The notes beneath the pieces were generated by a model. The model made no database searches, was not told the DNA's origin, and saw only the letters and a program-made list of their open reading frames with translations. DNA of 30,406 nucleotides from a virus: IMG/VR virus record IMGVR_UViG_3300032893_000221, positions 1 through 30,406 of that record, one strand, 5' to 3'. This document shows positions 2,390-30,406 of this stretch, in pieces (the first letter of the stretch is position 1; every line of letters begins with the position of its first letter). The translations under genes and the position numbers were made by a program.

Positions 2390-3826
2390 GTGGCCTCCCT
2401 CCGCGAACATGTAGCGGCGCTCTTAGGTGTTTCGACCTACCAGCCCCCATCGAGTGATGTCCCCGGCATAGCGCTCACGAGTGACATCATCGACCGCGTT
2501 CGTAGGTCGATTGGCGGCCAGCTCGAACCGCTACCCATCACCAAACTTCATTGGTTCCTACCGGACCTCGAAGTTTGCCAAACGCAAGCGGACCGCGGCG
2601 ACATGCAACTCGTCGGAATGCTCGGACAGAGTATGAGGCGGGACGGTGTGCTCCGAGGCCTCCTCGACGTCCGCACCTCTATCACATCGCTCCCTCGGAG
2701 GTTTCACGGTGGCACAACGAACCTCGGACGAGAAATCATCGAGGCACTGCAGGCAAAGAATGGGAGCGACCGCAGCGTCTTTGACGAGATGTTCCCGGCG
2801 AATGAGCTTTCTCGCTTCGCAGAGGACGGCATCGTGTGCGGCGTTGGCGTGGGAGAAATGGTCCCCGTCCAGGGCCGAAACTTTCCGGTCTTCGTCCGAA
2901 GGCTTCCGCAAAACCTTTGGTACCTCTGGCAGAGTAACCAATGGTTTTACCGCAGCATCGCGGGCCTGATTCCCATCATCCCGGGGATGCCCGATGCGAA
3001 CGGACATTGCTGGATGTTTTACACGCCGGGCGGCCGCGTCACGCCGTGGAACTATGGCCTTTGGCCGGCGCTTGGGCGCTCCTTCATTGCGAAGGAGCAC
3101 TCCTTCTACGCGCGGCAGAACTACATCGCCAAGCTTGCCAACCCCGCGCGCGTAGCAGAGGTCCCGATTGGAGCTACGGAACCCCAAAAGCAGGGGTTCC
3201 TGCAGAACATCATCGCATGGGGCCTGAACACGGTATTCGAATTGCCCGTGGGCTGGACCGTCAAGCTCCTCGAATCGAACGGGCGTGGCTTCGAGGTCAT
3301 GCAAGCGGACATCGACACTTGCAACAAAGAGTATGCGACCTCTCTTTGCGGCAACACCGTCATGATGGACGGCGGCGTAGGGTTTCAGAACGCCGACATC
3401 TTCCGCATGATGAGCGAGAATCTCATACGGCAGACGGCGGAGTCCCTTTGCCATGTGATCAACACGCAAGGCCTCCCCTATTTCATTGCCAATCGATGGG
3501 GCGACGGCGCCCTCGAGAATGCGATTGCCATCGAGTACGACACGTCCCCGCCGCAGGATAAGAAGGTTCAGGCGGACACGTTCGTGTCCCTGGGCACCGG
3601 CCTCAAGGCCCTGGCAGAGGGCCTTGCCCTCCACAAGCGGACTCTCAACGTCGACGAGATTGCCGCGCGCTTTGGCATTCCTCTCAACGAACAGAACCCC
3701 ATCCTCATGGCGGGCGCCGAAGACCCACCCGAGCTCTCGGCGGACCTCGTGCCTCCCGCGGCCAGTCTGGCGCCAGTGCCGACCGAAAAGAAGCAGCTCA
3801 ATGGCGCAAGCGCCGGAGTGAACTGA
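2390..3826 (+). CDS. Portal protein, Mu gp29-like (DUF935 type)
   Basis: The protein has 478 residues from GTG 2390, 24 bases after terL. Portal proteins form the dodecameric ring at one head vertex through which DNA enters and leaves. The region GVLRGLLDVRTSITSLPRRF (about residues 84-103) looks like the conserved N-terminal part of Mu gp29-type portals, which carry a short segment describing repeated sampling of 'inner' and 'outer' helices followed by a tryptophan-rich core. Length is close to that family. The gene ends TGATG, overlapping the start of the protease by one base, which suggests translational coupling. Identification uses similarity of pattern plus position between terminase and protease; no catalytic motif is expected. 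Confidence 0.85.
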   Translation: MASLREHVAALLGVSTYQPPSSDVPGIALTSDIIDRVRRSIGGQLEPLPITKLHWFLPDLEVCQTQADRGDMQLVGMLGQSMRRDGVLRGLLDVRTSITSLPRRFHGGTTNLGREIIEALQAKNGSDRSVFDEMFPANELSRFAEDGIVCGVGVGEMVPVQGRNFPVFVRRLPQNLWYLWQSNQWFYRSIAGLIPIIPGMPDANGHCWMFYTPGGRVTPWNYGLWPALGRSFIAKEHSFYARQNYIAKLANPARVAEVPIGATEPQKQGFLQNIIAWGLNTVFELPVGWTVKLLESNGRGFEVMQADIDTCNKEYATSLCGNTVMMDGGVGFQNADIFRMMSENLIRQTAESLCHVINTQGLPYFIANRWGDGALENAIAIEYDTSPPQDKKVQADTFVSLGTGLKALAEGLALHKRTLNVDEIAARFGIPLNEQNPILMAGAEDPPELSADLVPPAASLAPVPTEKKQLNGASAGVN

Positions 3827-27581: not shown

Positions 27582-28424
27582 TCATGCCGCCCATGGCGGA
27601 AGGCTGACGGTAGTTATGGTCATCGGATATCCGGGGAATGTGTCCGCCGTAATGCAGTAATCGAGCTCGGCCATCGCGGCGGATATGGCCTCACGCCCTC
27701 GCACGGTCGCCTCGAGGTCCAGCGTGTAGACTGCAATCAAATAAGGCGGCGTCCGCTCGATAACGACGAAGACGAAGTGCTCTATCGGGTGACCGCACGC
27801 CGCAAACCCGTCGCCGTAGAAAGCCCGTTGCCGGTGGTATCCGAACTTGGCAACGGAGCGCGCGAACGCCTCGGGTCTCGCATCCTCCGTGGTCTTCAGG
27901 TCCACCAGCATTCGGCGGGACTCGACGTAGTAGTCACCCCGTGCCTTGCAGCGAAGGCCCGTGCTCTCGTGGCGCCAAAGTGCCGTGACCTCCGAGGCGC
28001 CCCCCTTGAGCATCTCCGAGGCGAGCGGGTGCGCCCGAATGGCGCCGGACATTCCCAAGAGGTGGGCAGCGTCGGTAGCGCTCAAGAGGCGCTTGCCATC
28101 GTTCGAGGCCCGCCAAGCATCGCGCGCTGCACGGTTATCCGTCTTTCGGCAATCCCCGAATTTGGGTTCGACGACGTACGTCCGCGCGAACACTTCCGGT
28201 TCCAAGATGGCGCAATGTGTTGCGGTGCCGAACTCGAGAGTTGATGTCGATTCCTCTTCCACGCCATTCGTCCAAGCGCGATAGAGCTGCGGGGCCCGTG
28301 AGAACTTTTCGAGCGCCGTTCGGCTGATGATGCCCAACGCCCGCTCATGATAAACCTCTGCAGGCAGCCCATAGTGGAGCCCATCGGGAAGGTCCGATAG
28401 CCGGACCGGATTCGCTGTGGTCAC
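27582..28424 (-). CDS. RecE-like PD-(D/E)XK exonuclease
   Basis: The protein has 280 residues. GTG 28424 gives a 4-base GTGA overlap with the upstream stop and has GGGAG eight bases before it; a more upstream GTG at 28439 is possible. The nuclease core is visible: FGTATHCAILEP (H70), GLRCKARGDYY (D164), MLVDLKTTE (D175, K177) and FGYHRQRAFYGDG (Y196, Q199), matching the order H, D, D-x-K, Y/Q of exodeoxyribonuclease VIII-type and lambda-exo-like enzymes. It resects double-strand ends to give 3' single strands for annealing. The protein next to it (26750-27568) is its probable partner. Confidence 0.85.
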   Translation of the reverse strand: MTTANPVRLSDLPDGLHYGLPAEVYHERALGIISRTALEKFSRAPQLYRAWTNGVEEESTSTLEFGTATHCAILEPEVFARTYVVEPKFGDCRKTDNRAARDAWRASNDGKRLLSATDAAHLLGMSGAIRAHPLASEMLKGGASEVTALWRHESTGLRCKARGDYYVESRRMLVDLKTTEDARPEAFARSVAKFGYHRQRAFYGDGFAACGHPIEHFVFVVIERTPPYLIAVYTLDLEATVRGREAISAAMAELDYCITADTFPGYPMTITTVSLPPWAA

Positions 28425-28702
28425 TCCGCAATCTCCCACTGGTTCGATGAATACGTCCCATCCCCGAGATGCTTCGCGGAGAGCATCGGCGCGCGCCAGA
28501 GCCGCACGACACCGTCAATCTTCTCCTTGCGGTAAACCCATCGGTCACCGTCGCAGCTATATGTGAATTGTGGAGCCGGGGCGGGCGGGGCCATGAAGGC
28601 ATGGACTTCGCTCATCACCCGTCGGATCGCCTGGCCGTAGTGACTGTCTCCTTCGGTGTCCGAGAGTTCCGCGCAGAGAGCGAGCGCTTCAGTGAGCATC
28701 AT
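28421..28702 (-). CDS. Small hypothetical protein
   Basis: The protein has 93 residues, with ATG 28702 in ATGA overlap with the upstream cistron and GTGA overlap with the exonuclease. An N-terminal helical half (LTEALALCAELSDTEG, IRRVMSEVHAFM) is followed by a proline-rich break and a beta part (FTYSCDGDRWVYRKEKI, RLWRAPMLSAKHLG). No family is recognised. It is the second cistron of the operon, likely co-expressed with the recombination genes. Confidence 0.55.
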   Translation of the reverse strand: MMLTEALALCAELSDTEGDSHYGQAIRRVMSEVHAFMAPPAPAPQFTYSCDGDRWVYRKEKIDGVVRLWRAPMLSAKHLGDGTYSSNQWEIAE

Positions 28703-29198: not shown

Positions 29199-29265
29199 CT
29201 GTCATTCGACAGGCGCGTCAAGCCAAAAGTGTTCACTTGACAGCCCAGCCATTGTGCTCCACCAT
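29199..29265. promoter_or_regulatory. Candidate divergent promoter/operator region
   Basis: Inverted repeats cluster here: CTGTCATTCGACAG (29199-29212), GTCAAG/CTTGAC (29217-29222 with 29236-29241), and AAGTGTTCACTT (29227-29238). TTGACA at 29237-29242 is a consensus -35 for + transcription with a weak CACCAT (29260-29265) 17 bases on; TTGACG on the minus strand (29221-29216) is the candidate -35 for the divergent operon. The repeats overlap both -35 elements, as expected for repressor sites. Confidence 0.45.
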
Positions 29266-29563
29266 GACGATTATGTCGTACCCGAATGAGGGCGTCCGAT
29301 TGTTTCGCGAGGCCCTGGAACGCCGTGGCGAGCGGCCGGCCGATGCCGCGCGCGCCCTCAAGGTAGACGATGGCACGATGAGCAACTGGACGTCGGGCAG
29401 ACGCAAGCCGGGCCGATTTTATGCGGGCCGCATCTGCGAGATGTACGGCACTCCGACAATGGCCTGGGATGAGCCGTGCCGAGCCCCAGACCCCGCGCCC
29501 TCATCCCCGCGCATCACGGACACCGAGCGGCAAATCCCTGCAGTGAAAGCCACCGGGAGCTGA
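29264..29563 (+). CDS. Cro/CI-type HTH repressor
   Basis: The protein has 99 residues from ATG 29264, or 96 from ATG 29273; neither has a strong ribosome site. Residues about 10-60 are a helix-turn-helix of the XRE/Cro class: GVRLFREALERRGERPADA, then a turn and recognition helix LKVDDGTMSNWTSGRRKP, then YAGRICEMYG. The C-terminal 35 residues are polar and Pro-rich with no peptidase domain, so it is shorter than CI with an autocleavage domain and may act as Cro or a short repressor. It is divergent from the recombination operon across the repeat-rich region. If transcription starts near 29273, translation could be leaderless, as for lambda cI. Confidence 0.75.
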   Translation: MTIMSYPNEGVRLFREALERRGERPADAARALKVDDGTMSNWTSGRRKPGRFYAGRICEMYGTPTMAWDEPCRAPDPAPSSPRITDTERQIPAVKATGS

Positions 29564-29670: not shown

Positions 29671-30406
29671 GTGAATACCGAGAACGCGATGGATCAAGAA
29701 AATACCAAGGCGCGAATCATCGAAGAGCGGCTCGCGCGGCTCGCGGAGCTGCAGTTGCTGCATGGTAAGCACAAAAAGCAGACGCCAGAGAACGCGGCGA
29801 AAATGTGTGCCATGGAAGCGGCGGCGTACATTGCAGGCGAGCCGTGGTCCGATCATCCGCAATGCGTGTGCCCGGTGATTGCGAGCTTTATGCGCAATTG
29901 GAACGATGGGATTTTGAGCGATGAGGACCGGACACGTCTTCTCCGTCCGCTCATCCCGCTCACGATTGGGACGCGGGGCGATGATGCGCTGCTCCTGCGC
30001 CGCATGTGGCTCATCATCGATTGGGATATCCGGACGCGGACATCTGCGATGTTGCGCCTTGCGGGCCTTGTGTCGGAGGCATCAGCCTTAGAGGGCCTCT
30101 CCGAGATCCGCTCGCAAGCTGACTTGAAGACGGCTCGTGAGGCTGCGCAGACGGCACAAAAATCTGCGGATGCCGCGAGGGCTGCCGCGAGGGCTGCCGC
30201 GAGGGCTGCCGCGAGGGATGCCGCGAGGGATGCCGCGTGGGATGCCGCGTGGGATGCCGCGAGGGCTGCCGCGTGGGATGCCGCGAGGGCTGCCGCGAGG
30301 GATGCCGCGTGGGATGCCGCGAGGGATGCCGCGTGGGATGCCGCGAGGGATGCCGCGAGGGATGCCGCGTGGGATGCCGCGAGGGCTGTCGCGAGGGATG
30401 CCGCGT
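29671..30406 (+). CDS. DAAR/DAAW repeat protein, incomplete at window end
   Basis: GTG 29671 is preceded by GGAG with a five-base gap. At least 245 residues are visible; the gene leaves the window. Residues about 10-40 are a helical leader, and 40-135 form a globular part with [20 protein letters not shown], then [21 protein letters not shown] and [16 protein letters not shown], a pattern seen in a family of phage and actinobacterial proteins of unknown function that end in alanine-rich repeats. From about residue 167 the protein is a chain of tetrapeptides DAAR, AAAR and DAAW, about 20 copies to the end. Such repeats would form a long alpha helix with a stripe of Arg/Trp. No function is claimed. 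Confidence 0.7.
30169..30406 (+). repeat. Tandem 12-bp coding repeat array (19 full units plus part)
   Basis: Nineteen complete 12-bp units and ten bases of a twentieth run to the window edge. The unit is G(A/C)TGCCGCG(A/T)GG. Only the second base (Asp or Ala) and the tenth base (Arg or Trp) vary, apart from one C to T at the fifth base of the unit 30385-30396 (Ala to Val). Units with TGG occur at 30229, 30241, 30265, 30301, 30325 and 30361. The absence of silent changes suggests recent expansion or gene conversion. Confidence 0.95.

What the first reader, a model, noticed from the sequence alone, without database searches (positions are those of the whole stretch)
30169..30406. Near-identical 12-bp array encoding DAAR/DAAW tetrapeptides
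Directly seen: 19 full units, only two variable positions, both changing the amino acid, no silent substitutions, and six scattered Arg-to-Trp changes of a single base. The four-residue period places Arg/Trp on a rotating face of a helix. The N-terminal domain before it looks conserved. Inference: a rapidly evolving length-variable (VNTR) protein, perhaps a spacer or binding fibre, with Trp positions selected or left by mutation.
Basis: partly seen in the sequence, partly recalled or inferred. Interest (0 to 1): 0.7.

Follow-up and report, generated by a model that had tools for sequence, protein, structure and literature searches.

The report
Phage protein with composition-locked repeat arm
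A family of early genes in mostly uncultivated bacterial viruses carries a stretchable tail of near-identical 12-letter repeats in which only two letters are free to vary, both changing the amino acid, and the comparison suggests that evolution fixes what the tail is made of but not its order or length.

Summary
The array is real (30169-30406, 19 full 12-bp units plus 10 nt) and runs into the end of a linear IMG/VR contig.

The protein belongs to an uncharacterised phage family (phrog_3416/13065, no Pfam hit; at least 351 relatives in IMG/VR). Complete members read: conserved domain, XAAZ array of about 1-37 units, conserved C-terminal cap. It lies among recombination and repressor genes, so it is not a tail fibre.

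Main result: in 60 of 60 arrays, diversity sits at two nucleotides, X2 (Asp/Ala) and Z1 (Trp/Arg/Gly), at 0.47 and 0.61 against 0.01-0.03 at the silent Ala third positions. Silent choices are homogenised within arrays (Arg all AGG or all CGG in 42 of 43) but differ between arrays (at least 43 changes on a tree). This fits rapid concerted turnover plus selection on composition, and argues against neutral slippage, a diversity-generating retroelement or hypermutation. A 9-bp version shows the same two toggles. Near-identical phages differ by up to 39 units.

AlphaFold2 predicts a helical hairpin, here and on an unrelated domain (DUF7666) with the same array. Biochemical function is unproven.

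The parts
29671..30168 (+). N-terminal part of the array gene: GTG start at 29671 (or ATG at 29689), conserved all-helical domain of phrog_3416/13065 type, then a helical Ala-rich lead-in (about 30103-30168)
   Evidence: homology to 351 IMG/VR relatives; PHROGs matches; no Pfam match
30169..30406 (+). 12-bp XAAZ array, 19 full units plus 10 nt, cut off by the contig end
   Evidence: TRF and unit table; the C-terminal cap found in complete relatives is missing because the record stops here
29264..29563 (+). small helix-turn-helix regulator gene just upstream (context)
   Evidence: PF13560 HTH_31, E=1.3e-6
27582..28439 (-). PDDEXK-like gene (DUF3799), divergent from the array gene (context)
   Evidence: PF12684, E=2.6e-27
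2390..3826 (+). Mu-type portal gene; shows the record is a Mu-like-portal tailed phage (context)
   Evidence: PF06074, E=5.1e-27

Best explanation
The gene encodes an early (non-structural) accessory protein of a tailed phage with a Mu-like portal. A conserved all-helical N-terminal domain and, in complete relatives, a conserved C-terminal cap helix are joined by an Ala-rich XAAZ array that folds as a helical arm, predicted to be a hairpin whose length scales with unit number. The array turns over quickly by unequal recombination and unit-to-unit conversion, which homogenises every selectively neutral nucleotide. Selection on the amino-acid make-up of the arm (acidic or neutral at X; Arg, Trp and usually Gly at Z) keeps exactly two nucleotides per unit polymorphic, so composition is held while order and length are free. 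Shown: the array, the family, the two-site diversity, the silent homogenisation, the length variation, the early-module neighbours. Predicted: the hairpin. Inferred: the turnover mechanism and selection on composition. Least certain: the biochemical role; my best guess is a host-interaction or counter-defence protein whose arm is a length-tunable, low-specificity binding or oligomerisation surface (about 0.25).
For: Within-array heterozygosity 0.466 (X2) and 0.615 (Z1) against 0.014 and 0.029 at the two silent Ala third positions, in 60 of 60 arrays. Arg codons are AGG only in 29, CGG only in 13 and mixed in 1 of 43 arrays. Ala codons differ between arrays, at least 43 changes on an 82-row N-terminal tree. 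9-bp version L125: 28 units, only the two toggles vary. Arrays with Ser or Asn at X carry Glu at Z, and acidic and basic fractions correlate across arrays, rho 0.41, p 0.0016. L129/L132 differ by one X2 toggle in 8,390 bp; L171/L179 differ by 39 units. Block duplication signal p=1e-8. First unit more diverged than inner ones. Hairpin predicted for two unrelated N-terminal domains. Early-module neighbours.
Against: Selection is inferred from sequence only. Most arrays come from metagenome assemblies in which repeat order and length can be wrong; L282 is one clear exception. Antiparallel pairing of charge or size in the predicted hairpin was not detectable, and AlphaFold2 may favour hairpins for such sequences. 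X2 has no synonymous control of its own. The pooled spread of net charge per array (sd 3.6) is not tighter than the independent expectation (3.0), so selection on exact charge balance is not shown. Some members lack the array or have few units (L167, L176, L183), so it is not strictly required.
Confidence: 0.62

Rival explanations
1. Neutral low-complexity expansion by replication slippage in a GC-rich genome; the variable residues are left by mutation without selection.
For: Near-identical units, length variation and block duplications.
Against: Silent and amino-acid-changing sites in one unit share the same turnover, yet only the two changing sites stay polymorphic, in 60 of 60 arrays; the silent Arg codon choice is homogenised. 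The same palette recurs with a different period.
Confidence: 0.12
2. Targeted diversification (a diversity-generating retroelement acting on adenines, or another mutator) rewrites X2 and Z1.
For: In the window the two main variable bases are adenines in the majority unit; one toggle is the only difference in 8.4 kb between L129 and L132.
Against: Gly and Val at X are rare although A-to-N mutagenesis would give them. Arg codons AGG and CGG do not mix within arrays (1 of 43), as a mutator at Z1 would cause. The retroelement itself (reverse transcriptase, template repeat) was not specifically searched for.
Confidence: 0.06
3. The array is a DNA element (recombination hotspot, binding site) and the protein reading is secondary.
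For: Near-perfect tandem DNA near recombination genes.
Against: The DNA unit is not conserved: all four Ala codons occur at both Ala positions, and the period can be 9 bp instead of 12, while peptide chemistry and reading frame are kept and a conserved cap follows in frame.
Confidence: 0.03
4. The protein is an Imm5-like immunity or antitoxin protein, the array being the Ala-rich helical part of that fold.
For: Family B proteins with the same array match PF21805 Imm5_like across the array; Imm5 is a proposed immunity family of polymorphic toxin systems (PMC3482391).
Against: No Imm5 or Imm5_like match in any of 28 family A members at E 0.1; N-terminal domains A and B are unrelated by profile comparison; no toxin gene was identified next to it.
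Confidence: 0.15
5. A tail-fibre or other virion spacer.
For: Long helical repeats are known in fibres (general knowledge).
Against: Early, recombination and lysogeny neighbours in the window and relatives; no structural family among the top 25 neighbour families.
Confidence: 0.04

Closest known systems
PHROGs phrog_3416 and phrog_13065 (phage families of unknown function)
   Same: The N-terminal domain matches, and phrog_3416 also spans the array.
   Different: No function, structure or repeat behaviour is recorded there; the repeat dynamics are described here.
Imm5_like (PF21805) and Imm5 (PF14423) putative immunity proteins
   Same: Family B proteins carry the same XAAZ array inside the region matched by Imm5_like.
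   Different: Family A, to which the window belongs, has no match.
DUF7666 (PF24703)
   Same: DUF7666 proteins carry the same C-terminal array, also predicted as a helical hairpin.
   Different: The DUF7666 domain is mostly beta strands and unrelated to the family A domain.
Actinobacterial chromosomal homologues (Cryobacterium, Kribbella, Isoptericola and others)
   Same: Related N-terminal domain, about 40-53% identity over about 75-120 residues.
   Different: No array in those read; a non-repetitive C-terminal half instead.
VNTR and concerted-evolution protein arrays (general kind)
   Same: Length variation, homogenised units, a diverged first unit.
   Different: Only two nucleotides per unit escape homogenisation, both changing the amino acid, in independent arrays and with another period.

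Membership tests
phrog_3416/13065 phage family (family A) | N-terminal domain with GxH...CxxE...SDxPxC...WND...DW signature | tested here: met
   alignments A1 and A2; PHROGs 13065 E=1.6e-4 and 3416 E=0.0077 for the window N-terminus alone, 4.7e-8 for the whole protein with 3416
phrog_3416/13065 phage family (family A) | C-terminal cap helix after the array | not testable with these tools
   the record ends inside the array; the cap is present in complete relatives
Imm5 / Imm5_like | match to PF14423 or PF21805 | tested here: not met
   no match in the window protein (E up to 1) or 28 family A members (E up to 0.1)
DUF7666 | match to PF24703 | tested here: not met
   profile comparison of A2 with A5 gives probability 0.2%
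Diversity-generating retroelement target | adenine-specific, all-substitution variability | tested here: not met
   Val and Gly rare at X; Arg codons AGG and CGG not mixed within arrays
Diversity-generating retroelement target | reverse transcriptase and template repeat nearby | not tested
   no dedicated search was made; no reverse transcriptase among the 25 commonest neighbour families
VNTR protein | copy number differs between near-identical genomes | tested here: met
   L171/L179 differ by 39 units with flanks 99.4-99.8% identical; both are assemblies, at least partly metagenomic
Tail fibre / virion protein | location in the structural module | tested here: not met
Known anti-phage defence system | PADLOC model match | tested here: not met
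   no hit for 9 array proteins

The most novel reading that the evidence does not exclude
Phages carry an undescribed repeat module that arises on, or moves between, unrelated protein domains (family A, DUF7666, Imm5-like and others) and with different periods (12, 9 and probably 6 bp). In it concerted evolution erases neutral variation while selection preserves a fixed amino-acid palette (acid, neutral, Arg, aromatic) in free order: a protein segment whose phenotype is its composition and length rather than its sequence.
Probability: 0.4. Interest if true: 0.78.

Novelty: new variant of a known kind. Interest (0 to 1): 0.63.

Why it matters
Tandem-repeat proteins are common, but here the usual ambiguity between mutation, homogenisation and selection is eased by a natural control: silent sites and interchangeable Arg codons inside the same 12-bp unit. 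Dozens of arrays, re-homogenised many times, suggest that composition can be a selected trait independent of order, something usually argued for disordered proteins and here applying to a predicted helical arm. The family is large in environmental phages (at least 351 records) but was found in only 1 of 50,697 phage records, has no assigned function, and its arrays break assemblies, so it is probably under-counted. The sharing of the array with Imm5-like and DUF7666 proteins gives a testable route to function.

Tried and rejected
Close relatives by single-protein back-translation in IMG/VR and tblastn in isolated phages with the window protein: nothing; solved by searching for the array pattern first and then with the N-terminal alignment. 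The genome scan with the broad alignment failed for lack of conserved stretches; a narrower alignment worked. PDB fold search of the family A model and PDB sequence search with the N-terminal profile: nothing; fold hits of the family B model were all non-significant. BFVD gave only proteins without assigned function. NCBIfam gave only sub-threshold noise. Antiparallel complementarity of charges or sizes in the predicted hairpin: null. Autocorrelation of unit types at lags 1-6: null. Conserved neighbours of the actinobacterial homologues: none found. Literature searches for the peptide, DUF7666 and alanine-rich phage repeats: nothing relevant. DNA mimicry was considered and rejected: the window array has about as many Asp as Arg (14 against 13).

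Full report
What is in the window. The window is the complete record of a linear IMG/VR virus contig of 30,406 bp. It has a Mu-type portal gene (PF06074), a DUF2586 gene and a phage lysozyme; near the right end lie a PDDEXK-like DUF3799 gene on the minus strand and a small HTH gene on the plus strand. The last gene starts at 29671 (GTG) or 29689 (ATG) and runs off the contig. From 30169 to the last base it consists of 12-bp units reading GMT GYC GCG WGG: 19 full units and 10 nt of a twentieth. Position 2 is A 13/C 6 (Asp/Ala), position 10 is A 13/T 6 (Arg/Trp), and position 5 is T once (Ala to Val). There is no silent change.

Family. The protein alone finds nothing close. Searching IMG/VR for the degenerate array pattern returned at least 120 stretches, capped. 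Translation showed 45 proteins with an N-terminal domain related to the window's (37-60% identity over 68-138 residues), here called family A. A second group of 44 carries the same array on other N-termini; representatives match DUF7666 (PF24703) and/or Imm5_like (PF21805). The family A N-terminal domain has no Pfam hit and matches only PHROGs families of unknown function. An alignment of N-termini alone, which does not select for arrays, then found 351 relatives in IMG/VR, of which the best 80 were kept. Nearly all have an Ala-rich repeat array; complete members end in a conserved cap of the type aLkPTvxxLQxSAxxLxxRMI. Eighteen of the 80 contigs end inside or just after the array region, as the window does, so the break is probably caused by the repeat defeating assembly.

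Two-site diversity. For 60 arrays of at least 10 units retrieved through the N-terminus (window included), the mean within-array heterozygosity at the 12 positions is 0.075, 0.466, 0.061 | 0.015, 0.019, 0.014 | 0.011, 0.009, 0.029 | 0.615, 0.098, 0.039. Only the second base of codon X and the first base of codon Z are polymorphic as a rule; in 60 of 60 arrays their mean exceeds that of the Ala third positions. Those third positions differ between arrays: 17 combinations of X third base and Ala codons among the 60, and at least 43 changes of the Ala-codon pair on an 82-row N-terminal tree (the tree is poorly resolved, so the count is approximate). At Z, Arg can be AGG or CGG, each one base from TGG and GGG. 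Of 43 arrays with at least four Arg units, 29 use only AGG, 13 only CGG and one mixes them. A mutator acting on that base would mix the two; turnover homogenises them because the difference is silent. So the residues are maintained and the silent states are not, which points to selection on the protein. Arrays with Ser or Asn at X carry acidic Glu at Z (L124, L126, L192). A 9-bp relative, L125, has 28 units of GMC GCC WGG with A 12/C 16 and T 14/A 14 at the same two positions and seven invariant positions. L197 looks like a 6-bp version (GMC CKC, D/A and L/R), but only 24 codons are visible.

Turnover. L129 and L132 differ at one base in 8,390 bp, an A/C toggle at X2 of one unit. L171 and L179 are 99.4-99.8% identical on both sides of the array, yet L179's array is 156 residues (39 units) longer. 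Pairs with about 85-90% identical N-terminal DNA have quite different arrays. Longest repeated unit-words are longer than in shuffled arrays (3.87 against 2.67, p=1e-8), a sign of block duplication; there is mild order preference (Trp-Asp enriched, Trp-Trp depleted) but no lag autocorrelation. The first unit is more diverged at otherwise constant positions (5.0% against 1.8% inside), as expected at the edge of an array under concerted evolution. Against metagenome artefacts: L282 lies about 480 kb into a contig of a species-representative genome and has 18 units with X2 9/9 and Z1 T9/G6/A3; several other records (L078, L138, L139, L181) carry identifiers that, to my knowledge, IMG uses for genomes rather than metagenomes.

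Structure. AlphaFold2 on L012 with 27 relatives gives pLDDT 88.8: an all-helical N-terminal domain, then helix 133-184, a low-confidence turn within the array, and helix 192-241, which holds the rest of the array and the cap. A DUF7666 protein with the same kind of array gives pLDDT 81.7, with helices 120-155 and 160-205. The two N-terminal domains are unrelated by profile comparison (probability 0.2%). The hairpin is thus predicted in two unrelated contexts, but the method may favour such a solution, and a pairing test was null. No PDB fold matches the family A model.

Context and function. Neighbours of family A genes in other phages include exonucleases, RusA resolvases, Mu Gam-like, integrase, repressor, RecT-like and SSB proteins; no structural family is among the top 25. 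This places the gene in the early/lysogeny module and speaks against a fibre. Related N-terminal domains without the array occur in actinobacterial chromosomes and in Methylobacterium, where a non-repetitive segment precedes a similar cap (L207, L209). The biochemical role is open. The best guess, at about 0.25, is a host-interaction or counter-defence protein whose helical arm is a low-specificity, length-tunable surface; the Imm5-like relatives of the array are the main hint.

Novelty. No paper in the library describes the peptide or the pattern. The ingredients (tandem repeats, concerted evolution, Ala-rich helices) are known; the combination, with a built-in neutral control that points to selection on composition, is a new variant.

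Noticed in passing
L125, 3' end of the locus: A 9-bp (three-residue) version of the array, GMC GCC WGG, 28 units, with the same two toggling nucleotides and seven invariant ones.
   Followed up: yes
L197, 3' end of the locus: What looks like a 6-bp version (GMC CKC: Asp/Ala and Leu/Arg), cut by the contig end.
   Followed up: partly
L122-L201: 18 of 80 relatives' contigs end at the array, so such genes are probably systematically truncated in metagenome assemblies.
   Followed up: partly
L213-L281: A conserved, array-free actinobacterial chromosomal family (GKHRxPxxGACFMExASxLAGExWSDHPACTHP) related to the N-terminal domain, mostly Cryobacterium, Kribbella and Isoptericola; no conserved neighbours found.
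   Followed up: partly
L167: A family A member without an array, ending instead in what looks like a transmembrane helix.
   Followed up: no
L170: A member whose array region is non-repetitive or decayed but which keeps the cap.
   Followed up: no
L107, L109, L110: The same array sits inside or behind further, mutually unrelated proteins, including ones with sizeable domains after it.
   Followed up: no
window 29853-30406, minus strand: Long open frames also run through the array on the minus strand because the repeat has no stop codons; conservation supports only the plus-strand frame.
   Followed up: partly
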